A stretch of DNA of 64,000 nt from Phyto melanocephala (taxonomy: Eukaryota; Arthropoda; Insecta; Diptera; Rhinophoridae), in assembly GCA_941918925.1 (NCBI GenBank), contig OW799237.1, positions 88,323,015-88,387,014 on the forward strand. Reading direction: 5' to 3'. Positions 3,101 to 57,746 of the stretch are shown piece after piece; the stretch's first letter is position 1, and each line of letters begins with the position of its first letter. Under the pieces are notes generated by a model. The model had not been told where the DNA came from, did not search any database, and was given only the letters and a program-made list of their open reading frames with translations. The position numbers and the translations under genes are program-made.

Positions 3101-3765
3101 TGACTATGCATTTTCTTTTGCTTCTTTTTAAATTCTGCACAAAAGAACACGCAATATTTTGAACTTTAATATTTGTATTTTTTTTTCAGATTGATGGCAT
3201 GTGATATTGAAAGAAATTCTCATGAGCGAAAAAAAAATAAATAAAACATTAGAAATACTCTACTAGAATTTGTTTAAAATTTATAAAATTTCTAAGCAGA
3301 AGTATTGAAGGAAGTGTTTTAACTAAAGTTTGTAACAAAAACATAGTATTATTTTTTACATATAAATTTTTCGTTCTATATGTACAGCAAGAAATATTTT
3401 TTTAATTCCAAATAAAACATTATTAGTGCTTGTCAAGCACGGTGGCAAGGGGAGATAAAGAAAAAGATTTAAAAAAACTACCGTTTTTCTTTTGATAAGT
3501 AGTATTTAGTTTTGGCACCTACATACATATATCTATTAATATTTTATTTAAAAATTACCCCTCCCCCAAAAAAACAATGTGTAAGCTGGACTCGCGCTTA
3601 AGTTTGAAGTAAGATCGAAAAAATCTTAACTCACGTTTTGCCTCTTTAATCTTTTCGAAAACCATTAAATATGGTTTTTTTTTTGATATAGTTTTCTTTG
3701 AAAAATATGTCAGTTATTACCTTTAATGTCAACCATGTTGATTTGTTCTTTGTTCGATTAAAATT
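151..3765. other. AT-rich non-coding stretch (probable intron)
   Basis: I see no credible coding region, RNA gene or element with ends here. There are simple A/T runs, a short GT run near 2908, and a small inverted pair (AAAATGGGCC near 733 and GGGCCCATTTT near 788) too short to call. It is most likely intron or intergenic DNA. Confidence 0.5.
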
Positions 3766-3769
3766 AATG

Positions 3770-4660
3770 ACGAAAAGAGGTACATGCTCAAATTATTAAA
3801 AAATTTAAAAAAAAAATCTAAATTGGTCCTACAAAAAGTTGACCCAAGAATTTTAGGTTTGGCATTAAACTATTTCCAATGTTATTAAACAGTATCAGGA
3901 GAATTTAAGTACTACAAGGACACCAGGTTCGGAAAGGAAAAAAATTTCTACATGATATTGAGGAAGACCAAAAAAATTTAAACCGTATTAAAAAGAACTC
4001 TAAATATATCAAGTAGAAAATAAACCAGGCAAGTTCAATGCCAATGCCGGCTTGAAAACATAAAAAAAATCAAAAAAGTTCTGAACCTGAAAATTGTGCA
4101 AGGAAATTCAATTTAAATTTCTTACAAAAATACTCATGTTGTTTAATGAACGACGAAACGTTTGTACTGGCAGAATTTTGGCAGCTTCCGGGTCACAACT
4201 TTTACAAATTTACAAATAAGTTTAGGACCCAAAACCAAACAAAATTTCCTAAAAACTCTTGGTATGGCAACCTTTATGCAGTTGCGGCAAAAGAAGTTTG
4301 TTACAGTGGGCTATAAAAATACTGAAATAAGTACACACAAGAGAAATTTTGCAAAAAAAAGTCTTTCAGCTCTTATAAGAGAGGAATTTATAGCCTGGTT
4401 TGGCATTAGGTCGCAGTGGTTAAAAAGCTCTCGGGAGATTCTAAACCAATAATACAATTTTTGTACGAAGAGAGGCCAATCCTCTTAATTGTTCGGAGCT
4501 AGGATGTTCGGAAGATTGATGTTGGGCTCTTGTGAAGATTTTAAAAAGAGTTTTTTCAACTGGTAAAAAAAGTAGAAAAACCTGTCTCACCGCTAATGGA
4601 AGGATTGCCAAAAAAGGCTTCCGAAATATGTCAAATTTTTTTTTTTGATTTCGCTCCTTA
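3770..4660 (+). pseudogene. Decayed Tc1/mariner-superfamily transposase
   Basis: This is a dead DDE transposase copy in several frames. An N-terminal helix-turn-helix remnant lies near 3840-3950 (reading VIKQYQENLSTTRTPGSERKK). A core follows at 4147-4315, with MNDETFVLAEFWQLPG, then KFRTQNQTKFPKNSWYGNL. The D of NDETF is the expected first catalytic aspartate. A C-terminal remnant near 4470-4520 reads NPLNCSELGCSED..CWALVK, the usual NPPNCPELRPIE..WALVK block of this family that carries the third acidic residue. The middle catalytic block is unrecognisable, and several stops and frameshifts separate the pieces. I found no terminal inverted repeats. Transposition is no longer possible from this copy. 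The family assignment is from recognised motif order, without a database search. Confidence 0.72.
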
Positions 4661-6057
4661 ATTAGGCTATCTCGAGACTCTGAAAAGCGTTCTCACGTCC
4701 AAAATATTTCAATGAATTAAAAAATCAACTCAACTTTCGTGACATGAGACTGGGAATAGGTCGATTGTAGGGTCTTGGCTCTTTTTGGTATTTGTTTGTT
4801 ATCCTCTTCTTTACCATTGCCTTTCTTCTTTCTTTATTCCATTCTCTTTTATTCGTATTCTAATTCTTATTGTGATCTCTATTTTTTAATTTTAAGGCGT
4901 CACAATGGGCCGTATTGGTCTCTGGGTGAGGGTGTGAGGGTTACTTCACACCGGCCTTACTTACCTACCTACCTACCTTGGTTAGTATTAAAAATCATTT
5001 TTATCAATAACAAAGTAGAAAAAATAAATTTTTAAACAGGATGTCAAAAATACTACATAAAACTTAACAATGATGAAAAATTTCCTGAGAGTCATTTTAC
5101 TTAAATAATTGTTTAATGGTTGTTTTTCTTGCTTAACATTAATATTTAAACATTTTATAAATTATTTTTATAAAACGATCATTACCAATTAACCAAAATT
5201 TAAAAACAAAGATTTTTAGGATTTTTTTTTTTTAATATTTTTATAAAAAAAAATTTCCAAAAATTTTTTTTATTAAAAAATTTCCCAAGAATTTTTTTAT
5301 TAAAAAATTTTCCAAGAATTTTTTTATTAAAAAATTTTCCAAAAATTTGTTTATTAAAAATTTTCCAAAAAAGTTTTTTTATCAAGAATTTTTATTATAA
5401 CCTAAAATGCTATTAAAAACGTATTTGGCTAATAAAGTATACATGACTAGCAAACTTGAGATTTAAAATATTCTTACAAATAAAAATATCAAAGATGCCA
5501 CGCCCACTTTACCAAGCTCACATATATTTTGTTCAACTTTATTAGCAATAAAGTTCAAAAATCCGCTCATATGATGTAGTTTTATTAATAATGATAATAA
5601 AAATATTTCTGCAAATATCTTTGCTAGTAATTAATCCTTGGATCAAAATTTCTTATAAAGGTACTTTAGGGTATATATTAAAAGGTTATATGAGAGCTGC
5701 CGGTAGTACTTAGTGATCGTCAATCGCGAAAGATTTTAATAAACACACGAACGGATGAAGAGTCTAACTCAACTCATTTACCTAAAAGCATTCGTAATGA
5801 ATATACCATTGGATCACGTACGAATATTGTGAAAATTAAAAATTAAAATAGAAACTTATACACCCCCACTACATCACAATAAAGTGTATAACAATATATA
5901 GGTTAACCAACAAATAAATAATAAAACAATTATATTAGGATTAGTCAACTACGTACCCTTACGGGGTATTTAAAATTGCTTTGTTTTAATATTAAAAAAG
6001 CTTCTATTATTATAAATCTTCCTAGGTAAACTTTTCATTGCAAAAAACTCTAATAAA
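4661..6057. other. AT-rich non-coding stretch with one short tandem array
   Basis: Apart from the 27-bp array listed separately, nothing codes here. A stretch near 5690-5790 contains an AATAAA and looks vaguely LTR-like, but no paired ends were found. Confidence 0.45.
5255..5392. repeat. 27-bp AT-rich tandem repeat, four to five copies
   Basis: The unit TTATTAAAAAATTTTCCAAG recurs with TATTAAAA starting near 5271, 5298, 5325 and 5352, a period of 27. Because 27 is divisible by 3, it produces a spurious open frame of repeated Phe/Lys/Asn on the minus strand. I do not regard that frame as a gene. Confidence 0.75.
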
Positions 6058-7785: not shown

Positions 7786-8503
7786 TTTATTCCCTTCACC
7801 AGTGGTGCACAAGGGAATATATAGCTTTGTCATATCGTTTGTAATTTCTACAATTTTCATTTCCGACCCCATAAAGTATATATTTTCTGAAAGCTTATGA
7901 ATAGAGGAGTCGATTAAGACCTGACCGTCTGTCCGTCTGCCCGTCTGTCCGTGTGTTGGTTGTAATCAACTTTTAGAAGCAACTATATGTTCCTCAGATC
8001 TGTGTATGGTATCAATCTCTTGGAAATATCCAGGAATGAATCGCTATTGAAATTCAGCACAATCGCCCCATAACTTTCTGAGATATTAGCAAAAAACCAC
8101 GACCACCTCGCTTTTTTTCACAATTACAACAACAACATACATACATACATACATACATGTAAAAAACATACCAAACAAAAAAAATTACAAAAAAAAAAAA
8201 TATTAAAAATAAGAAAAAAATAATAAAAAAAACTACAAAAAAAAAATTTTAAAAAAATTTAAAAAAAAATTTAAAAAAATTTTTAAAAAAATTTAAAAAA
8301 AATATAAAAAAAATAATAAAATATAAATAATATATTAAATAAAATAAAATTTTTTTGGCTCAGCTGGGATTCGATGCCACATTTATTCTAACGGTTACGT
8401 ATGCACGTATTTTATATGGGATGAACAACAATTGTTATTGCATGACTACACGTTGTGAAGGGTATATAAAATTCGGCACGGCCGAATATAGCGCTCTTAC
8501 TTG
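7786..8503 (+). mobile_element. DINE-1-like element, full length
   Basis: The 5' end is TATTCCCTTCACCAGTGGTG. It is followed by the conserved CATTTCCGACCCCATAAAG block, a GTCCGTCTGCCCGTCTGTCC tract, a block ending TTTCTGAGATATTAGC, a CATACATACATA run and an A-rich middle. The 3' end is AAGGGTATATAAAATTCGG, then the hairpin TTCGGCACGGCCGAA, then TATAGCGCTCTTACTTG. It is immediately followed by a second partial copy. Confidence 0.88.
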
Positions 8504-8510
8504 TTTTTTT

Positions 8511-8880
8511 TACAATTAAAACAACAACATACATATACACTGGTTAGAGTAAACGTGACATGAATCCCAGCTGAGCCAAAAAAAAATTTTTTTTATTTTT
8601 TTTATATTATTTATATTTTTATTATCTTTTTTATATTTTTTTTTAATGTTTTTAAAAATTTTTTTTTGTAATTTGTTTTTTTTAATAAATTTTTTTTTTT
8701 TTTTTGGAAACAGATGTACATTTGTAAACCCAATTTATAATTCTGTAATAGGATGTTTTGCATATGTATGTACGTATTTTATATGAGATGAATGGTGATA
8801 CAAACAATTGTTATTGCATGACTGCACGTTGTGAAGGGTATATAAGATTCGGCACGGCCGAATATAGCACCTTTACTTGT
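8511..8880 (+). mobile_element. DINE-1-like element, 3' half, in tandem with the previous copy
   Basis: The copy starts at the internal ACAACAACATACATA block that precedes the AT-rich middle of complete copies. It ends with the hairpin TTCGGCACGGCCGAA and CACCTTTACTTGT. The 5' half is missing. Its junction with the preceding 3' end looks like a head-to-tail partial dimer. Confidence 0.8.
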
Positions 8881-9039
8881 TAAAATTACTATCAAATAAA
8901 ACCATTTAAGCCTGCCTATTTCTGGTTAAATTACTTGTTAGGTTATTTGTGATAAAACAATTTTTTAATAAAAGAAATTAATCTGTAATTTTTGTATAAC
9001 AAAATGTTTAATTAGTTCACTGAGAAAAAAAGTGCGCTT

Positions 9040-9800
9040 TAAAATTAAATGGGAACACTTTCAAATTTTATTTAAAGTGCCTCAGTCTATAGGTTCTTAT
9101 GGGGAGCACAAAAAAAATATTTTTTAAAAGTGATAATTTTAAGTTTTTAAAGTGTTCACTCTTAATTTAAAAGTAAAAATTTTTGTTTTTAATGTAAAAT
9201 TCTTTAATTTAAAAATGTTGACTTTATTTTATAACGAAAAACTTTATATTTTAAAGTAAAATATATTATTTATAAAGTAATCACTTTTAAAATTGCATTA
9301 AAAGTGAATACATATAATTTAAAATTTGTAAAAATTAAAAAAAAAAATTAAAACGTTTATTTTCAAAGTGTTAACTTTAGAATGTAAAGTGATCAATTTG
9401 CAAAAAAGTGTTAACGTTTACATTTAAAGTGTTCACTTTATAAATCAAAGTATAGTTTTTTTAATTTAAAGTGTCACTTTCTAATTTAAAGTGTTCACTT
9501 TAATATTGAAAGTTTTAGTTTTGAGTTAAAAGTGTTAACTTTAATTTTAAAGTTTTCACTTTAATATATAAAGCGTCAGTTTATTACTAAAAGTGTTCAC
9601 TTTGACATTTAAAGTGTACATTTTGTATTAAAAGTGTTAACTTTTAAACTCAAAGTGTCCTTGTTGGAACTAAACGTGAACACTTTAAAACGTAACGTAA
9701 AAATTTTTATTTTCAAAGTGTTTAAGTTTATTTTAAAAGTTCCACTTTAAATTGTACCGTAAGCGGCATTTGTGTGATTTCGTTATAGTAAAGTGAGTTT
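9040..9800. repeat. Left subterminal array of AAAGTG/CACTTT iterons
   Basis: More than a dozen AAAGTG hexamers occur here, many as near-palindromes with CACTTT or AACTTT across a TT spacer (for example 9425-9440, 9487-9502, 9529-9544, 9590-9604). Spacing is irregular, usually 20-60 bases. Such arrays are typically transposase-binding or promoter elements, which is inference here. Confidence 0.85.
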
Positions 9801-9823
9801 AGAAGTGTGAACAAGATACAAGA

Positions 9824-11626
9824 ATGACCAGTCAGGGTAAAATAATACAAGAAAGTGACTTGCTGCGAATTCTTGGAAACGATATCCAAATTAATGAGCA
9901 CGGTGATTTAACGTACACGTGTGTTGAGGAAGATACGGATCTCCTTAATCTGCTAAAAGAGTTTGACCTGGAAACACTTTTTCTTGACCTAAAAAGTAAG
10001 TAAAAATTCTTAGGCAATATTAACACTTATGCAATGTTGTTGATGTTCCTTAGATGCTGAAATAACTTTTCGAAGCTTAAAATTTGTATCAAAAGAAGAC
10101 ATTGCGGAGGCAGTAAGAAATATTGGTCTTCGAGCGGAGTTTAGAGAAAAATTGTTTTTCTGGCGCAAGTCAAAGGTAAATATAATATTAATTTTGAAGC
10201 TTATTTGCAATGTTTAGCAAGCTTATTTTTTCAGTTTGAAATAGAAGACGAAACTTTGAGCCAGACTTCGAAAGTTGTTGGGTGGCTAGAAAAAAACCGT
10301 CACAAAGATTCACCTTGTTCTTCAAATAATTCAATAAGAAACGAATTTGGATCACAGGTAAAATAATATACAGTGAAAATTTTTGTATTAAATGTAATGA
10401 TGCACTGCATTGTAACCCCCTTCAACATTTTTAAAGAATAACTCAGCCGGAAAACAACTTATTCAATATTATGAGGAAAGGAAATGTTTTACGAATAAGC
10501 AACGCGATGACCTCATTAAAATAATTTTAGAAGATGTCATGTTAACAAAGGCAAAACTTAGACCGGAACACTTTGCTAGTATTTTGGAAGAAATAATTGG
10601 TTAATTTTCCAAAGGAAAAAAGTCCCAGGTATTATTAAAAACGATATATTAAAAAGAACATTTTGTAAACTGATTTCTTTCAGGATTATTACTACATTCC
10701 TGGTCAAAGAAAAAAAAACCCATCAGGCAAGCTCTATTCCAAATATTTTAACTTAAAGACAAAGATTAGAAAAAGTAGTCCACCTGCGAAAAGATCTCTT
10801 TCAAGTGATTTACGTGATCCATTAGTGGAAGAAAATTTTGAAGTTGACGAAACGCTGTCGTTGTGTTTAAAAACTTCGCTTCAAAAAGATTCCAGTAATT
10901 GGGATGAGGTTATTGACAAATGGCAAAAAAAATTTACATTTCGGAAGAAGGATTTGGCAAAGCGCTCAAATTCTGATTTTTTGCTGGAGTGGCCAAAGAC
11001 TCCAGAGCACCATTTCTGGTATTTAAAAAGAACTTTAACACAAAACTCAAGGATATACAAATTTTTATATTTTTTTCAGATTAATCTAGATTTCAATTTG
11101 ATTTGTCCACAAAAAGAGAATCTTTTAAAAACAAAGTGGAAAAATTTTAAAACCAAGATATTGAACTACTACGATGTCAACATATGGAATCAGCAATCAA
11201 TAGGTCTTCTGAACCAAGCAAAAACGACGAAAAAAATTGGTGAGTAACAATAATGAGCTTTTTGTTAAATTTATAAAATAACAATAAACATTTTTTTCAG
11301 ATTGTCAAGACTACATTGTTACAATTCTTCTCAATTCAGTTCTGCTGCCTTCAGCAAGACTAAGTGCAAATGGAAATACAAAAAAAAGAAAGCCACCATT
11401 AAAGATGCTAATGAAAGCTTCGTATTGCAGTTAACAACAATTAGCGATTACTCAAGACAAATAAAAGAACTTATCGGTAAATACTATTATAGTAAACTGA
11501 CTATACATTGTTTCGACTATAATACATTATAAAGGAATCGAATATAAACAAAATAATTTTTTAGCATTACTGAATGAAATAAATTGTTGTATCTATAAAA
11601 TCAAACTTTTTATTTATGAAAATTAA
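9824..11626 (+). pseudogene. Decayed seven-exon gene for a SAM-like (SAMD3-like) protein
   Basis: Exons inferred from GT/AG sites are 9824-9995, 10054-10175, 10235-10357, 10437-10628, 10684-11239, 11301-11476 and 11565-11626. The start is the ATG at 9824. Exon 2 reads FRSLKFVSKEDIAEAV, then IGLRAEFREKLFFWRKSK, a sterile-alpha-motif-like pattern. Exons 4-5 give QLIQYYEERKCF, then YYYIPGQRKKNPSGKLYSKY, then WPKTPEHHF and DFNLICP. Exon 6 contains KDANESFVLQL. That block order recalls uncharacterised animal proteins annotated as SAM-domain-protein-3-like; this is recollection, not a search. The defects are an in-frame TAA at 10602-10604, a frameshift in the A-run near 11375-11395, and an ambiguous intron at about 11026-11081. 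The gene lies wholly inside the TIR element, so it is probably its cargo or its own mobility gene. Confidence 0.65.
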
Positions 11627-11754
11627 ATTATTTACGTTCTATGTTATCCTATTGAAATTAATAAATTTGATGTACATTTTCAATCTTACGAGACTGGTAT
11701 AAAACAAAATTGCCTAAAACTGATTAACATTTCACATATCACAAGCCTGCCTTT

Positions 11755-12090
11755 TAAGTTGCATTTAAAAGTTTTCACTCTTAAAATAAAAGCTAACGCT
11801 TTTAATTTGAGATTGAATGTGTTAACTTTTAATTTAAATACAAACATTTTTAAATTGGGTTAAAAGTGTGAACTTTAAAATCAAAAGTGTTTAAATTGAA
11901 TTCGAGAATGCGCATGTTAAAATTTAAAGTTTTCACTTTAATATTCAAAGTGTTAACGTTAATAATTTACATTTTAAAGTGAAAACTTTAAAATTAAATA
12001 TTTTTCAATACGGCTGGTTTTCATACATGAAAATTTTTAATTTTAAAGTCCTTTGTACTGGATTTAAAGTGAGTTTAAAGTGTTTCTTTT
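11755..12090. repeat. Right subterminal array of AAAGTG/CACTTT iterons
   Basis: This mirrors the left array: AAAAGTGTGAACTTTA near 11862, AAAGTTTTCACTTTA near 11931, CAAAGTGTTAACG near 11956, TAAAGTGAAAACTTTA near 11983, and TAAAGTG at two sites just inside the right end. Confidence 0.8.
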
Positions 12091-12201
12091 CTGAGTGTTG
12101 AAATAATAAAACTGTATAAAAAAATATGAGAAATATTGAAGATTTTGTATTTTAAAGTATTACATTTGAACTCTTTTTAATTTGTATTATATTTTTATAT
12201 T

Positions 12202-32770: not shown

Positions 32771-32773
32771 TTA

Positions 32774-33214
32774 AACAAGTAAGAGTGCTATATTCGGCCG
32801 TGCCGAATCTTATATACCCTTCACAACGTGTAGTCATGCAAAAACAATTTTTGTATCACCATTCAATTCATATAAAATACGTACATACATATAAAAAACA
32901 TAAATATATAAAAACATCCCATTGTACAATTATAAATTGAGTTGACGTACATATGAACATATGTAAAAAAAAAATTAAAAAAAAACAATAAAAATATAAA
33001 TATTATTATATAAAATAAAAAATAAAAAAAAAAAATTTTTTTGGCTCAGCTCAGTATACCACGTTTGTATGTATGTATGTATGTATGTATGTATGTATGT
33101 ATGTATGTATGTATGTATGTATGTATGTATGTATGTATGTATGTATGTATGTATGTATGTATGTATGTATGTATGTATGTATGTATGTGTTGTATGTTGT
33201 TATTGTTATGAAAA
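32774..33214 (-). mobile_element. DINE-1-like element, 3' half
   Basis: The plus strand starts AACAAGTAAGAGTGCTATA, then the hairpin TTCGGCCGTGCCGAA and TATATACCCTTCAC, then the AT-rich middle and TTGGCTCAGCT. It ends after a long TATG array where the next copy begins. The 5' half is missing. Confidence 0.82.
33066..33188. repeat. (TATG)n microsatellite, about 30 units
   Basis: An uninterrupted TATG tetranucleotide array sits at the spot where complete DINE copies carry a short TATG or CATA run, so it is an expansion of the element's own microsatellite. The Met-Tyr-Val-Cys and Tyr-Ile-His-Thr open frames on both strands come from this array and are not genes. Confidence 0.97.
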
Positions 33215-34018
33215 AACAAGTAAGAGTGCTATATTCGGCCATGCCGAATCTTATATACCCTTCACAACGTGTACTCATGCAATAACAGTTGCTTGTATCA
33301 CCATTCATCCCATATGAAATACGTACACGTATTTATGTTAAAAAAACGAAAAAAAAAAAAATTTTAAAAAAAAATTTAAAAAAAAAATTTAAAAAAAAAT
33401 TTAAAAAAAAAATTAAAAAAAAAAATTATTATATATATAATATACATATATAAAACAAAAAAATAAAATAAAAAAAAAAATAAAAAAAAAAATTAAAAAA
33501 AAAATAATAAAAATATAAATAATATATTAAATAAAAAATAAAAAAAAATAAAAAAAAAATTTAAAAAAATTTAAAAAAAAAATTAAAAAAAATTTTTTTT
33601 TGGCTCAGTTGGGATTCGATGCCACGTTTTCTCTAACCAGTATACACGTTTGTATGTATGTATGTTGTTGTTGTAATGTTGTTTTTGTGAAAAAAAAATC
33701 GAGGTGGTCGTGGGTGTTTGCTCATATCTCAGTTGTGTATGTACCGATGTTTCTGATTTTCAATACCGATCTACTCCCGAATATTTCTGATATTTTAATA
33801 CCTTACCCGGGTCCAACCTATGTCGGGGGGCTTCAAAAAGTTGATTTCAACATACACACGGACAGACGGACAGACTGACAGGGCTTAATCAACTTCCCTA
33901 TTCATAAGCTTTCAGAAAATATATACTTTATGGGGTCGGAAATGAAAATTGTAGAAATTTTACACGGAATGACAAATATACCCTTTATACCCTTTTTCAC
34001 TGTGTGAAGGGTATAAAA
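33215..34018 (-). mobile_element. DINE-1-like element, full length
   Basis: It runs from AACAAGTAAGAGTGCTATAT and the hairpin TTCGGCCATGCCGAA, through a long A-rich middle, CTCATATCTCAGTTGTG, the CGGACAGACGGACAGACTG tract and GGGGTCGGAAATGAAAATTG, to GTGAAGGGTATAAAAAA. It is a complete copy in minus orientation. Confidence 0.88.
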
Positions 34019-37484: not shown

Positions 37485-38609
37485 TCTTCTATATATATAA
37501 AATAGGATGTATGTATGTAACGTATGAACTCCAAGATGGCTGGACCGATTTTGATGAAATTTTCAGGGAATCTTAGGCGGGTGACACTGTGAAGTCTGAT
37601 TTTTGATTTTCGGTCCACGGGCGGAGGGGCGTAGCAAAATCCAATTTTCATATTGCACCACCAATGTCATATACATATATTTATTTTGTTTGCTTTTTTT
37701 ATTCCCTTTTAAAGCCGTTGTCATTATTTTCCATAACGAGATGTCAAACTTTTAAATCGGTTATGTAGTTCCGAAGACATTCACAAAAAACCTATGTTAA
37801 TAATGATTCAATAGCAAAATTTATAAAACTTTCGAAATGTTGCATTCAAAATACCGAGTTACGGTTTATTTACAAAAAATATTTACAGCTCAATGAGCTA
37901 ATTAAATTGAAACTGCCCGGCAAATTAATCTAACAGTAATGGATGAAGAGCAAGCCGTCAATTATCCCACTGAATTTTTTAATTCATTGGGACCACCCGG
38001 AATGCCACCGCATGTACTAACATTAAAGGCTGGATCACCGGTAATTCTTATTCGCAACTTAAACGAACCAAATTTATGCAACGGAATCAGATTGACCACC
38101 CAAAACTGTTCATCAATTTTAATCGAGGCAACAATCATCGGTGGCAGATTAAAAGGCGATGACGTACTTTTTACACAAATTCCGATGACTTCCAACAATT
38201 TACCATTCCAATACAAGCAGCTCCAATTTCCTTTGCGTCTGGCCTTTGCTATTACCATCAATAAAGCACAAAGTCAATTCATTTCTTTTTTACACGGCCA
38301 GTTATATGTGGCTTGCTGCCAAGTTGGAACGCCAAAAAATTTATACGTTTTTACACCAAATAAAAAAACAAAAAAACATTGTCCCTCTGCTAGCCTTAAG
38401 ATGAAGTAATAAATAAATATAATTTCCAATTTGCCTTAAATACATGCGTTTCTTTTTAGATTGAGCCCATACCTACACCATATGTAAGTTATTCTGTAAA
38501 AAAAACTTTATTTAAAGACCGTAAATTTCGTTAAAAGCTCAATTTAAATCGTGTGGTAAAACAATACTAATGTTTGTTTACGGCCAGCAACTCGGACCGG
38601 GTGAGCTAG
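37485..38609 (+). mobile_element. Helitron with helicase remnant
   Basis: The 5' end TCTTCTATATATATAAAATA follows an A at 37484. The 3' end is a GC-rich tail, CTCGGACCGGGTGAGCTAG, followed by T at 38610. These ends fit the Helitron rules, and the helicase fragment inside is in the matching orientation. The 5' end could alternatively be 37488. Confidence 0.82.
37939..38409 (+). pseudogene. C-terminal part of Helitron Rep/helicase
   Basis: The 156-codon frame matches the end of the Pif1-like helicase domain of Helitron RepHel proteins. In order: NYPTEFFNSLGPPGMPPHVL, LKAGSPVILIRNLN, LCNGIRL, FPLRLAFAITINKAQSQ (helicase motif V region) and HGQLYVACCQVG (motif VI region). In motif VI the usual arginine of CSR is glutamine, and the segment between KAQSQ and HGQLYV is shortened. 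The Rep nuclease and the first helicase motifs are absent. A full protein is well over 1000 residues, so this is a truncated, inactive copy. Confidence 0.85.
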
Positions 38610-44924: not shown

Positions 44925-45254
44925 TCAGTCGTTATCAAAAAACGAAAGCGATTAGACGTGCGATATCTTATGTTGACGGAGTGTTCAAAACAAAATTGTG
45001 TATTATAGAAAACAATAATCATATCAGTATAGCTTATATACAAAAAAAACCAACAAATAAACTTTGTGCATTGTTAAATGCAATTGCATTAAACAACAAA
45101 ACACTTACATCTCTTATTGCAAATGCATTAAGCAAAAACAAAAACAAAATAAAAATAAAAAAAAACCGTAAAGTAAAAATTCCAAACCTATTATTTTGAA
45201 AAAAAAAAAAAAAACAAATAAAAACAAAAAAAACAACAAAATAGTGTAGCTAGC

Positions 45255-46415
45255 ATGACTACTGCTAGTATATCTAGCATTGATGATGCCAGCGAAGAAA
45301 GTGAATGTGAATGGCAAACAATCAATAATACAAATAAACGTCGCCAATTAAACCCACCAGGAGCCTTTATAAGTAAACGTAAAGCAATAACAAATGATAT
45401 ACCAACTTGTTCAACAAACAGATTTGCTGTTCTAGATGATGAAAATACTGAAATTAATGCAGAGCATTATGCGATTGAACCTAGACCTCCCCCATTATAC
45501 ATACCTAAAGTTACTAACGTGAAAGACATGAATCAACGCTTTGCCAGTGTTATATCTCCCACACATTACTCTTACAAAGCACTCGGAGACGGCCAAATCA
45601 GGGTAATGGTTAAAACCATTGACTCTTATAGAAAACTTGTTTCCTATCTTAAATCTAAAAATATAAGTTTCCATACTTTTCAACTCAAAAATGATAGGGC
45701 TTATAGAGTAGTTGTAAAGAATTTACATTATTCAACAAACACTAATGACATTAAGACATTTATTGAAAAATTTGGTCATAAAGTACGTAATATATCTAAT
45801 ATAAAAAGTTATCTAACAAAAGAGTCACTTTCAATGTTCTTTGTTGATCTCGAACCTAAAGACAACAACAAAGAAATCTATAATCTAACACATATTAACA
45901 ATGCGATTGTTAATATAGAACTGCCACGTAAGACAAACAACATCCCCCAATGTCACCGCTGCCAACAATACGGGCACACAAAATCCTACTGTCATAAACC
46001 TTATAAATGCGTTAAATGCGGAGGAAATCATATTACTGCTGAGTGTATAAAAAACCAAACTTCACCACCTAAATGTGCCAACTGCCAAGAGTCTCATCCT
46101 GCTAGTTATAGAGGTTGTATAGTCCATCAAGAACTAAAAAGAAAAATGCAAAACAAATTAACTAATTATCACCGTGGACAACCAATTCCAAACTCACAAA
46201 ATGAAGATATATCCCATAAATATACAGATAATTTAAATCCACAAATGTCCCATAATATGTCTTACTCTGATGCTATAAAAGGCAATATTAAATCAAATAA
46301 TACCAGTGAAAGTTCCATTTTACAAAAAATTGAAACGCTCCTTACTAAACAAATGGAGATGACAAACACATTACTAAATATGATGTCTTTAATATGTAGT
46401 AAACTATGCCAATAG
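45255..46415 (+). CDS. Jockey ORF1: gag-like RNA-binding protein
   Basis: The 386-residue protein has an N-terminal variable region. A PRE_C2HC-like segment around residues 130-230 follows (RVVVKNLHYSTNTNDIKTFI, FFVDLEPK). Three zinc knuckles come next: CHRCQQYGHTKSYC from residue 233, CVKCGGNHITAEC from residue 252, and CANCQESHPASYRGC from about residue 274. ORF1 proteins of this type coat the LINE RNA and help carry it to chromosomal targets. The start is the ATG at 45255, the first in frame that leaves the zinc knuckles intact and follows the leader. The stop overlaps the ORF2 start by 10 bases, so ORF2 is probably made by reinitiation or termination-coupled translation (inference). Length is normal for the family. 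Confidence 0.94.
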   Translation: MTTASISSIDDASEESECEWQTINNTNKRRQLNPPGAFISKRKAITNDIPTCSTNRFAVLDDENTEINAEHYAIEPRPPPLYIPKVTNVKDMNQRFASVISPTHYSYKALGDGQIRVMVKTIDSYRKLVSYLKSKNISFHTFQLKNDRAYRVVVKNLHYSTNTNDIKTFIEKFGHKVRNISNIKSYLTKESLSMFFVDLEPKDNNKEIYNLTHINNAIVNIELPRKTNNIPQCHRCQQYGHTKSYCHKPYKCVKCGGNHITAECIKNQTSPPKCANCQESHPASYRGCIVHQELKRKMQNKLTNYHRGQPIPNSQNEDISHKYTDNLNPQMSHNMSYSDAIKGNIKSNNTSESSILQKIETLLTKQMEMTNTLLNMMSLICSKLCQ

Positions 46416-49096
46416 ATTTAAGGGTAGCAACATGGAACGCTAACGGACTTATTAACCACATACAGGAAGTGGAAATATTTTTGAAAACAAATTTTATAGA
46501 TATTTTACTAATCTCAGAAACTCACTTTACAAAGAAATCATTTTGCAAAATAAAAAACTTTGATTTAATTACCGCTAACCATCCAAACGAAAGAGCCCAC
46601 GGAGGTTCAGCTATCCTAATAAAATCAAATATTAAATACTCAACAGAAGAACATATAACCACAGAATACGTACAAGCTACTTTTATTAAAATAATATGTA
46701 ACAATTCATTGGTCTCTATTTGCGCTGTTTATTTCCCCCCCCGCCACAACGTAAAATGCTTAGATTACGAAAATTTGTTTAATAAACTCGGTCCACGTTT
46801 TATAGTCGGTGGCGATTTTAACGCTAAACACCCTTGGTGGGGTTCACGTCTAATTAACCCAAAAGGGAGAGAACTACACAAATGCCTAATGAAGAACAAT
46901 TTTTCTACTCTGTCTACAGGAAAACCAACATACTGGCCCACTGACCCGAGAAAAATCCCTGACCTATTAGACTTTTTTATTTATTTTGGAATACCAAGTA
47001 ATATGTTTGAGATCAAAGATAACTACGAATTAAGTTCTGACCATTCGCCAATAATACTCTCATACAATACTTATATCAAACAATTGCCAAAAATTTCAAA
47101 ACTTATTACAAATAAAACTGATATAGAATCTTTTTCGTACTGGGTAGATGCAAATATTAATCTAAACATTCCTATAGAAAACGGTTTTGAGTTGGATAAT
47201 GCGGTGGAAAAATTCACAAACTTAATACACGAAGCTGCTTTAAGGTCAACGCCAGTAAAAAACTGTGGAAATAACCAATGTAATTTTAAAGTATCAATGG
47301 AAACACGTGAACTTATAAGACACAAAAGGCGACTAAGAAAAAATTGGCAAACAACAAGAAATCCGAACGACAAACGGTTACTTAACCAAGCAACAAAATT
47401 ACTAAAACTTCATTTAGTTGAACTAAAAAATAAAACAATTAGTGAATTTTTTGATTCTCTAAATAACAATATTGATAATGATCACAAACTATGGAAAGTA
47501 ACGAAATGTTTAAAACACCCAACAAAAAGACATCCACCTTTTAAAGATCTGAATGGTACATGGTGCAGATCAGACTCAAGCAAAGCTGATGCTTTTGCAA
47601 ATTATCTTTACAATGTATTTAATATACAGCCGCACGAAAATGTCCAACAAGATGATGATGTGTTACAATATCTCGAAGTTGCATGCCAAATGAGTTTGCC
47701 TGTTAGGCCGATCTCAACCTCAGAAATAAAGGATGAAATAAAGATGTTAAATGTTAAAAAATCTCCTGGGTATGATAATATAGATGCAAAGGTATTGAAA
47801 AACCTTACAAAAAAAGCAGTAGTTCATCTCGCAAATATCTTTAATACCATACTAAGAATAAATCACTTCCCATCCCAATGGAAATGTGCCGAGATAATAA
47901 TGATTAGAAAACACAATAAGCCTGAAAATGAAATCTCATCATACAGACCAATTAGCTTGCTTAGCATTTTTTCAAAAATATTTGAAAAATTATTTTTAAA
48001 ACGTTTATCCCCAATTTTAGAAAGATTAAAAATCGTACCCGATTACCAATTCGGTTTCAGGAAAAAACATGGAACAATAGAACAAATTCATCGAGTTGTA
48101 AATACAATTAGAACATCTTTTGAAGAAAAAAAATACTGCTCAGCAGTTTTCCTAGATATAGAAAAAGCTTTTGACAGAGTCTGGCATAATGGTTTATTAT
48201 ATAAAATAAAAACTCTTCTTCCATCTAGCTTCTATCATATCATCAAATCATACCTGCAAGATCGAACATTCTATGTAAAAATTAATGACGAAAAATCAGA
48301 CATTACTGATATCAGAGCGGGAGTTCCGCAAGGTAGTGTATTAAGTCCCATTCTTTTTTCTATATATACATCTGACATGCCAATACTTGATGAAATACAA
48401 GTGTCAACGTATGCTGATGACACTGCAATACTGGCATCAAATGAATCTCCAATTATAGCTGCAAATCTAGTGCAAAATCAACTAATTATGATAAATACAT
48501 GGTCAAAAAAATGGAAAATTACGGTTAACGTAGACAAATCAGCCCATGTTTTATTTACCTTAAGAAAAGGAGACTGCCCACCGTTGATGTTAAATAACAT
48601 ACCAATCCCTAACAAAGACTGCATTAAGTATCTTGGTATACATTTAGATCGTCGATTAACATGGAAACAACACATAAAGTCTAAAAGACAACAATTAAAC
48701 ATTAAAAATAGAACCCTATACTGGTTACTAGGTGGTAAATCAAAACTAAGCATTGAAAACAAACTGAAGTTATATAAAGCTATTTTAAAACCTGTCTGGA
48801 CATACGGAATTGAACTCTGGGGAACTGCAAGTAATTCCAACCTCGAAATACTTCAAAGATACCAATCAAAAACTCTGAGACTAATTGCTCAAGCACCATG
48901 GTACATAACCAACGAATCAATTCATATCGACCTTCAAACACCCACAATAAAGGAGGTTATAAGAACATTCAGTGACAGATATTTATCTAGATTGGACAAC
49001 CACGTCAATACGTTAGCTATTTGTTTATTAGATGACACAGACAAAATAAAAAGACTTAAGAGACACGATGTCTTAGACCTACCATTTCGAAGATAA
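46406..49096 (+). CDS. Jockey ORF2: endonuclease-reverse transcriptase
   Basis: The 896-residue protein begins with an APE-type endonuclease: WNANGL (10-15), SETHF with E38, GGDFNAKH with D137 and N139, and SSDHSP with D212/H213. It nicks target DNA. The reverse transcriptase follows: SPGYDNID near 450, SYRPISLLS, FLDIEKAFD with D584, GVPQGSVLSP from 639, and STYADD with D671/D672, the catalytic aspartates. The C-terminal part (KYLGIHLDRRLTWKQHI, then WTYGIELWG) is usual for Jockey-clade LINEs, and there is no RNase H. All key residues are present and the length matches the roughly 900 residues of Jockey. It would copy its RNA at the nick (target-primed reverse transcription). The start ATG lies inside the end of ORF1. 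Confidence 0.96.
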   Translation: MPIDLRVATWNANGLINHIQEVEIFLKTNFIDILLISETHFTKKSFCKIKNFDLITANHPNERAHGGSAILIKSNIKYSTEEHITTEYVQATFIKIICNNSLVSICAVYFPPRHNVKCLDYENLFNKLGPRFIVGGDFNAKHPWWGSRLINPKGRELHKCLMKNNFSTLSTGKPTYWPTDPRKIPDLLDFFIYFGIPSNMFEIKDNYELSSDHSPIILSYNTYIKQLPKISKLITNKTDIESFSYWVDANINLNIPIENGFELDNAVEKFTNLIHEAALRSTPVKNCGNNQCNFKVSMETRELIRHKRRLRKNWQTTRNPNDKRLLNQATKLLKLHLVELKNKTISEFFDSLNNNIDNDHKLWKVTKCLKHPTKRHPPFKDLNGTWCRSDSSKADAFANYLYNVFNIQPHENVQQDDDVLQYLEVACQMSLPVRPISTSEIKDEIKMLNVKKSPGYDNIDAKVLKNLTKKAVVHLANIFNTILRINHFPSQWKCAEIIMIRKHNKPENEISSYRPISLLSIFSKIFEKLFLKRLSPILERLKIVPDYQFGFRKKHGTIEQIHRVVNTIRTSFEEKKYCSAVFLDIEKAFDRVWHNGLLYKIKTLLPSSFYHIIKSYLQDRTFYVKINDEKSDITDIRAGVPQGSVLSPILFSIYTSDMPILDEIQVSTYADDTAILASNESPIIAANLVQNQLIMINTWSKKWKITVNVDKSAHVLFTLRKGDCPPLMLNNIPIPNKDCIKYLGIHLDRRLTWKQHIKSKRQQLNIKNRTLYWLLGGKSKLSIENKLKLYKAILKPVWTYGIELWGTASNSNLEILQRYQSKTLRLIAQAPWYITNESIHIDLQTPTIKEVIRTFSDRYLSRLDNHVNTLAICLLDDTDKIKRLKRHDVLDLPFRR

Positions 49097-56871: not shown

Positions 56872-57746
56872 TATCGGATGTCCCAACTATTTTTAAATTT
56901 GGCGCCATTCGAAGTGTCATTGTTTGACATTTGAACAATTGTTATTGTTTGCTAGTAGAAGGTACGAGGTTAGTAAAAATGGAGCGCTACACGAATGAAC
57001 AACGCATTCTCATTGTTCGCCAATTGCGATCATCCCATTTCCATCTTGATGGCTTCGTCAATAGGCAGAATTGTCGCATTTGGGGTGAGGAAAATCCTCG
57101 AGTGATATACGAGAAGCAAATGCATCCTCGACGTGTCACTGTGTGGTGTGGTTTTTGGGCTGGAGGAATCATTGGACCTTTTTTTATGAAAATGAGGCAG
57201 GTCAAGCGCAAACAGTCAATGGTGTTCGGTATCGTGAAATAATAACCAGTTTTTTATTGCCTAGAATTGAAGAAATGAATGTGGAGGGCATGTGGTTTCA
57301 ACAAGATGGCGCCACATGTCATACAGCCGTAGAAACAATTCAATTGCTGCATCAGTCATTTCCCGGTCGTGTTATTTCGAGTTTTGGAGACCAGAATTGG
57401 CCGCCTAGATCGTGTGACTCAACACCTTTAGATTTTGTTCTTTAAGGTTTTTTGCAGTCGATGGTTTACGCGAATAAGCCGACGACGACTCAATCCTTAA
57501 AAGAGGAAATTGGACGCTGCATTAATGAAATACCGCAGCATTTATGCAAAAAGGTCATTGAAAATTTCATAAAAAGATCGCGTGTGTGCCAGCAAAGCCG
57601 CGGCGGCCATCTGCACGATATATTGTTCCATACATAACCTCATTCTGTCTACTTTACGATATAATAAAGTTTCATGATTTTTTTTTTTTTAATATCTGTG
57701 TTTTATTTAAAATTTAAAAATTGCGTTCTAGTTGGGACACCCGATA
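56872..57746 (+). mobile_element. Internally deleted mariner-like element with TIRs
   Basis: The ends TATCGGATGTCCCAACTA and (other strand) TATCGGGTGTCCCAACTA are inverted, and TA lies outside on each side (56870-56871, 57747-57748). The 875-bp length is shorter than a full element of about 1.3 kb because the first third of the transposase is deleted. Confidence 0.88.
56979..57637 (+). pseudogene. Mariner-like (IS630-type) transposase, deleted and frameshifted
   Basis: The ATG at 56979 gives MERYTNEQRILIVRQLRSSH, then jumps to FHLDGFVNRQNCRIWGEENP, showing that most of the DNA-binding part and the first catalytic block are gone. The frame continues VTVWCGFWAGGIIGPFF. It then shifts by one base in the T-run at 57179-57185 and resumes with YENEAGQAQTVNGVRYREII, MWFQQDGATCHT (second catalytic D), WPPRSCDSTPLDF (third D, with 36 residues between the two) and a stop at 57443-57445 where the family has tryptophan. 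SRGGHLHDILFHT ends the protein. It is inactive, but its TIRs could be mobilised by a related enzyme. Confidence 0.88.

What the first reader, a model, noticed from the sequence alone, without database searches (positions are those of the whole stretch)
9018..12097. TIR element whose only gene encodes a SAM-like protein, with no transposase
Inverted CACT(G/C)AGAAAA ends with TT on both sides enclose exactly one spliced gene (exons at 9824-11626). The protein has a SAM-like segment and blocks typical of uncharacterised SAMD3-like animal proteins. No known DDE, HUH, tyrosine or PiggyBac-type transposase is visible. Either this gene is the mobility protein of an undescribed superfamily, or a host gene has become regular cargo of a non-autonomous element. 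The copy is only lightly damaged (one stop, one frameshift), so the capture or the element is not ancient.
Basis: partly seen in the sequence, partly recalled or inferred. Interest (0 to 1): 0.8.

Follow-up and report, generated by a model that had tools for sequence, protein, structure and literature searches.

The report
Deleted CACTA-type transposon with SAM-domain gene
This is a crippled copy of a fly "jumping gene" of the CACTA kind whose more complete relatives in the same genome carry two genes side by side, a cutting enzyme that looks built like the antibody-gene recombinase RAG1 and a SAM-like partner protein; this copy lost nearly all of the enzyme gene and kept most of the partner gene.

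The parts
9018..12097 (+). whole element, 3,080 bp, internally deleted non-autonomous copy
   Evidence: ends, 2-bp duplication and 11 other both-ended copies
9016..9017 (.). left copy of the 2-bp target-site duplication (TT)
12098..12099 (.). right copy of the 2-bp target-site duplication (TT)
9018..9028 (+). left terminal inverted repeat CACTGAGAAAA
12087..12097 (-). right terminal inverted repeat CACTCAGAAAA
9027..9748 (.). left subterminal array: 22 matches to AAAGTGNNCACTTT (9 or more of 12 positions); 18 of 21 spacings are 19-22, 41-42 or 62 bp
11768..12090 (.). right subterminal array: 9 matches of the same motif; 4 of 8 spacings are 21 or 42 bp
9824..9995 (+). SAM-like gene, exon 1
   Evidence: frame and splice signals; homology
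10054..10175 (+). SAM-like gene, exon 2
10235..10357 (+). SAM-like gene, exon 3
10437..10628 (+). SAM-like gene, exon 4, with one in-frame stop
10684..11018 (+). SAM-like gene, exon 5, with a net -7 indel relative to L009; its 3' end is inferred by eye from relatives
11080..11239 (+). SAM-like gene, exon 6 (intron before it inferred from relatives)
11301..11507 (+). SAM-like gene, exon 7, with a net +2 indel relative to L009, cut short by the internal deletion
11507..11509 (.). deletion junction (one extra T): 2,421 bp present in L009 are missing here
11508..11764 (+). remnant of the transposase gene: C-terminal (BAH-like) part, with stops
   Evidence: P0016 308-372 at 11510-11704, 94%, E=1e-33; P0019 703-793 at genome 88334509-88334778; fold of residues 676-803

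Best explanation
The window holds a non-autonomous deletion derivative of a two-gene CACTA-type (EnSpm; CMCT clade) DNA transposon. Fuller members encode (1) a transposase with N-terminal C2H2-type fingers, a RAG1-like DDE core and a C-terminal BAH-like domain, and (2) just upstream on the same strand, a SAM-like protein. The transposase most likely binds and cuts the CACT..AGTG ends and inserts the element with a 2-bp stagger, usually at TA. The SAM protein most likely plays the part of plant TNPA: it binds the phased palindromes that fill both ends and, by SAM self-association along one face of the DNA, coats, compacts and pairs the two ends for the transposase. Since the two coding regions lie close together (about 30 bp in L009), they probably share a transcript. 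The window copy lost 2.4 kb (the end of the SAM gene and most of the transposase gene), keeps both ends and arrays, and was moved in trans. Shown: ends, duplications, empty sites of L009, deletion, shared junction in other copies, two-gene order, transposase motif layout and modelled fold. Inferred: catalysis, binding partners, SAM polymerisation, shared transcript, mobilisation in trans.
Against: SAM identity rests on weak scores (best E 0.0008 in a single member, 0.06 by profile; the model, pLDDT 73.9, gave no Foldseek hit at E<=0.001). Nothing shows that the SAM protein binds DNA; the transposase's own fingers could bind the arrays. 22 of 49 transposase loci showed no SAM match within 6 kb, and 42 of 69 SAM loci no transposase match (both lists hold top candidates only). 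In one search three more fetched loci with SAM matches (L021, L022, L024) had no transposase match, so 8 of 11. The most complete copy, L009, has a frame break in its transposase. Ends and arrays were worked out for one family only; scans of others gave no clear ends or arrays.
Confidence: 0.9

Rival explanations
1. The SAM-like protein is itself the only mobility protein of an undescribed superfamily (first reader, option 1).
For: It is the only sizeable gene that can be read in the window copy.
Against: L009 carries a transposase of RAG1-like modelled fold directly downstream; its tail is still present in the window copy; the SAM-protein model gave no confident fold match of any kind, which neither shows nor excludes a nuclease.
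Confidence: 0.02
2. A host SAMD3-like gene was captured and became cargo of a non-autonomous element (first reader, option 2).
For: Many predicted proteins of the family stand alone in the databases, and P0002 is joined to PF07776; 42 of 69 SAM loci had no listed transposase within 6 kb.
Against: Where both are found, gene order and strand are fixed across divergent families in one genome (27 of 27) and the two are joined in gene models of three flies and a beetle, as expected of an old element gene, not of recent cargo.
Confidence: 0.03
3. Two-gene CACTA-type element, but the SAM protein is not an end-binding partner: it regulates the element (repressor, anti-silencing or protein-interaction factor), and the phased palindromes are bound by the transposase's C2H2-type fingers.
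For: The transposase has conserved N-terminal C2H2-type fingers; no DNA-binding domain is recognised in the SAM protein.
Against: In plant CACTA elements the subterminal repeats are bound by the second protein (PMC2613891, passages read); a SAM domain of the best-matching kind (Tankyrase) polymerises (title of PMC4980433 in the listing), which would fit 21-bp phasing.
Confidence: 0.3

Closest known systems
CACTA/EnSpm elements of plants (maize En/Spm, soybean Tgmt)
   Same: CACT.. ends, arrays of subterminal motifs, conserved transposase plus a second, poorly conserved protein, internally deleted copies moved in trans (PMC2613891, abstract and passages).
   Different: 2-bp (mostly TA) instead of 3-bp duplications; the second gene lies upstream of the transposase gene and encodes a SAM-like protein; palindromes in 21-bp phase; BAH-like C-terminus on the transposase (not compared with plant transposases here).
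TRC/CACTA elements of animals (SmTRC1; Spongebob)
   Same: 2-bp duplications, Transposase_21-related transposase, animal hosts including insects (PMC1636069 abstract and passages; PMC4298943 passages).
   Different: Their ends begin CCC, not CACT; the TNPA-like products of SmTRC1 showed no relatives in other animal or fungal elements, whereas the SAM protein here has relatives in flies and a beetle.
[quoted passage not shown]
   Same: C(2)C and H(3-4)H between second D and last E; CA..TG ends; 2-5 bp duplications (PMC12730594, passages).
   Different: Placement inside the clade was not tested by a tree; no SAM partner is mentioned in the passages read.
RAG1 / ProtoRAG / Transib
   Different: About 10% identity; C2H2-type fingers and a BAH-like domain; a SAM-like partner instead of RAG2 (RAG2 recalled, not compared).

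Membership tests
[quoted passage not shown]
   D293, D384, C404-x2-C407, H607-x3-H611, E631 in 56 of 56 aligned members, chosen as fuller-length from 117 hits; catalytic roles inferred from fold and motif layout
CMCT clade (CACTA/EnSpm-Mirage-Chapaev-Transib) | 5'-CA..TG-3' ends in most cases | tested here: met
   CACT..AGTG at the ends of the window copy and of 11 others; those 11 were picked by this pattern, so for them it holds by construction, but their 2-bp duplications place the ends independently
CMCT clade (CACTA/EnSpm-Mirage-Chapaev-Transib) | 2-5 bp target-site duplication | tested here: met
   2 bp in 12 of 12
CACTA/EnSpm proper | Transposase_21 (tnp2) and DUF4218 domains | tested here: inconclusive
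   Transposase_21 in 5 of 56 (best E 0.0011), DUF4218 in 13 of 56 (best E 0.0038)
CACTA/EnSpm proper | arrays of subterminal repeats inside the ends | tested here: met
   15 of 15 window matches with at most 1 mismatch lie inside the element; 15 in the two end regions of L009; other families unclear
CACTA/EnSpm proper | second element-encoded protein beside the transposase | tested here: met
   its homology to plant TNPA was not tested
CACTA/EnSpm of plants | 3-bp target-site duplication | tested here: not met
   0 of 12 copies have a 3-bp match
CACTA/EnSpm proper | alternatively spliced single transcript giving both proteins | not testable with these tools
   no transcripts at hand; the short gap between genes and joined gene models are only suggestive
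Animal TRC elements (SmTRC1 type) | CCC at the start of the terminal repeat | tested here: not met
   window ends begin CACT
RAG1/Transib fold | RAG1-like DDE core | tested here: met
SAM domain | SAM fold/sequence at the N-terminus of the second protein | tested here: inconclusive
   weak but consistent:

The most novel reading that the evidence does not exclude
An old lineage of animal CACTA-type transposons uses a two-protein system in which a SAM-domain protein polymerises on helically phased palindromes to pair the ends, while a RAG1-fold transposase with a chromatin-reading BAH-like domain cuts and chooses the target: a metazoan counterpart of TNPA/TNPD, and a design parallel to RAG1 with a separate partner.
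Probability: 0.45. Interest if true: 0.75.

Novelty: new variant of a known kind. Interest (0 to 1): 0.6.

Why it matters
DeMarco et al. 2006 (PMC1636069, abstract and passages read) assigned a TNPA-like role to products of SmTRC1 but found no relatives of them in other animal or fungal elements. Here a candidate turns up that is found in flies and a beetle and sits beside the transposase. It explains a set of unnamed insect proteins as transposon genes and offers a RAG1-fold transposase with an extra BAH-like domain, useful for the question how RAG-type recombinases and their partners arose. I found no description in the library searched: (CACTA, transposon, SAM domain, insect; CACTA, sterile alpha motif) gave 0 papers; (SAMD3, transposon) 6, unrelated by title; (two of EnSpm, sterile alpha motif, SAM domain) 655, of which the 10 listed look unrelated by title and none was opened; (three of transposase, BAH domain, RAG1, Transib, CACTA) 128, and none of the 12 listed holds 'BAH domain'. 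Repbase and most subscription papers are not in that library.

Tried and rejected
Chance ends: the 11-bp ends with one mismatch occur as often as expected, so I relied on the arrays, copies and duplications instead. Viral contigs were scanned for the SAM protein and for the transposase: pattern matches (23 and 77), none confirmed. Pfam on the SAM protein gave only a below-cut-off WbmS-like hit; PDB sequence search gave one hit at E=2.8. DUF4769 matches 11 of 24 SAM-family members (best E 1.2e-7) but has no known function. Foldseek with the SAM model gave nothing at E<=0.001. A profile search of the PDB with the transposase showed zinc-finger proteins in the 60 rows printed (of 172), so the RAG1 link rests on the fold and the motif layout, not on sequence. 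Ends of other families: a pair of loci (L027, L028) is alike beyond the element, so its ends could not be set; autocorrelation and inverted-repeat scans of two other families gave no clear ends or arrays; for a third family only the right end ...TTTTGAGTG followed by CA, CA or TA was reached. Two kinds of spanning rows were not counted as empty sites: L010's own left flank running into its element (also seen in L008, the same place), and a 71% match of the L009 flanks in L010 that has a gap at the site. Of 18 places fetched, 7 lack one or both exact ends and were left out of the duplication count: L018 and L021-L026. A2 used 56 of the 117 transposase hits; A4 used 24 of the 40 SAM-family proteins listed.

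Full report
What was claimed. A 3,080-bp TIR element at 9018-12097 with one SAM-like gene and no transposase.

The element is real. The 11-bp ends match exactly and sit between two TT dinucleotides. By themselves such ends are not beyond chance (one mismatch: 4 matches, 3.7 expected). The decisive feature is what lies inside them: imperfect palindromes AAAGTGNNCACTTT. All 15 window matches with at most one mismatch, and 22 of 28 with at most two, lie in the element, in blocks 9027-9748 and 11768-12090. On the left 18 of 21 spacings are 19-22, 41-42 or 62 bp, on the right 4 of 8 are 21 or 42 bp; base autocorrelation peaks at lag 21 in both blocks (0.487 and 0.460; highest value in 300 first-order simulations 0.415 and 0.423). 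About 21 bp is two turns of DNA, so such sites face one side of the helix.

It is one of a family. The window's own genome (739.75 Mb, 9 contigs) gave 96 matches to the element. I fetched 18 places. Eleven of them have both exact ends; 7 have one or none. With the window that makes 12 copies; all 12 have a 2-bp duplication and none a 3-bp one: TA in 10, CA in one, TT in the window. L009 sits in a dispersed repeat; its joined flanks, with one TA kept, run straight through the site without a gap in five other places (L020 98%, L037 96%, L026 95%, L017 94%, window 8211-8507 88%), so the insertion was precise.

It is a deletion copy. L009 (5,741 bp) matches the window element from base 1 to 2490 and again from 2492, with 2,421 bp more between. 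The window joins L009's 3458 to 5880, with one extra T. The junction 20-mer is present in 6 of the 7 other copies tested: L011, L012, L013, L014, L015, L019; in L020 the exact 20-mer is missing though the alignment runs through. Three further copies (L016, L017, L018) share another deletion (1617/2549). Two classes of deletion copies at different sites, the both-ended ones with their own 2-bp duplications, indicate that such copies moved with proteins supplied from elsewhere (inference). Over the shared left part, window and L009 differ at 79 of 2,483 aligned bases (3.2%).

What was deleted. L009 encodes the C-terminus of the SAM-like protein and, about 30 bp further on, a protein 93% and 92% identical to the two parts of P0019, an 807-residue predicted protein; L009's own copy has a frame break between the parts. 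The window keeps about the last 100 codons (P0016 308-372 at 11510-11704, 94%; P0019 703-793).

What the SAM-like gene is. The conceptual protein has 18 relatives at E<=0.001; 16 are named and all of those are flies, the closest in Zeugodacus (79% over 68%, 83% over 41% of the query). A profile search listed 28. SAM identity is weak but consistent: SAM_1 in 4 and SAM_2 in 3 of 24 members; five PDB profile hits up to E=10, two named as SAM-domain proteins and the others (Tankyrase-1 twice, USH1G) SAM domains by recall; the model (pLDDT 73.9) has SAM structures among weak hits only. P0014 (Eurosta), P0016 (Zeugodacus), P0030 (Haematobia) and P0120 (beetle Exocentrus) are gene models with a stretch of the SAM protein followed by a stretch of the transposase (blastp; in P0120 the SAM-family match is distant, 24% identity, E=5e-19). 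In Haematobia, LOC142242535 and ...536 (SAM parts) and ...537 (transposase part) bear consecutive numbers and each is listed from a contig of 76,722 bases.

Linkage test. Eight loci were returned for the best SAM matches; seven have the N-terminal part of the transposase just downstream on the same strand and one only its C-terminal end (14 transposases and 7 SAM proteins were the queries; one of the eight is the L009 locus). In the same call three other fetched loci with SAM matches (L021, L022, L024) had no transposase match, so 8 of 11. Merging the two genome tables (98 SAM matches, 69 loci; 58 transposase matches, 49 loci), 27 transposase loci have a SAM match within 6 kb, all 27 on the same strand and upstream; 1,000 random placements of the SAM loci gave at most 2. 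Ten of the 27, the window included, belong to the window's family by their places. Of 13 transposase loci spanning more than 2 kb, 10 have it. 22 transposase loci and 42 SAM loci lack a partner in these lists; both searches score only top candidates, and decayed copies are expected.

How it most likely works. By analogy with plant CACTA elements, in which a second, unconserved protein binds the subterminal repeats, both proteins are needed, and deletion copies move in trans (PMC2613891, passages), the SAM protein is the likely array binder. Palindromes call for a dimer; phasing and a SAM domain suggest growth of a filament along one face of the DNA, which would bring the ends together. The fingers of the transposase are a rival for the arrays. 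The BAH-like domain may steer insertion by chromatin (inference only).

Verdict. A known kind (CACTA-type transposon, CMCT clade), in an animal variant whose SAM-like partner, phased arrays and BAH-ended RAG1-fold transposase I did not find described in the searches named under Why it matters. The window copy itself is an ordinary deletion derivative; its interest lies in exposing the partner gene.

Noticed in passing
window 45222-49096 (+): Two slightly overlapping long open frames: 397 aa with PRE_C2HC and 897 aa with endonuclease and reverse transcriptase; a non-LTR retrotransposon with both frames open.
   Followed up: partly
window 37906-38409 (+): Fragment with the Pif1 helicase 2B domain, probably from a Helitron (origin recalled).
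   Followed up: partly
window 57089-57445 (+): Open frame that looks like a mariner-type transposase fragment by eye (recalled motif); no Pfam hit at E<=0.001.
   Followed up: no
window 8211-8507, 8763-8881, 32773-32891, 33213-33327: Copies or parts of a dispersed repeat that also hosts the L009 insertion; the first is an empty site for it.
   Followed up: partly
G000 C3:13626186-13628609, C1:133869712-133872135, C3:115638609-115641032: Second family of the same kind: three copies with uninterrupted frames of 849 aa (34% to P0019), SAM match about 200 bp upstream, right ends 97-99.6% alike; may have been active recently.
   Followed up: partly
P0002 (Zeugodacus cucurbitae); SAM-family alignment A4: P0002 joins PF07776 (zf-AD by recall) to the SAM-family protein; 11 of 24 family members match DUF4769, so that domain of unknown function may come from this transposon gene.
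   Followed up: no
L016, L017, L018: A second class of deletion copies sharing the junction 1617/2549, which removes part of the SAM gene and most of the transposase gene.
   Followed up: partly
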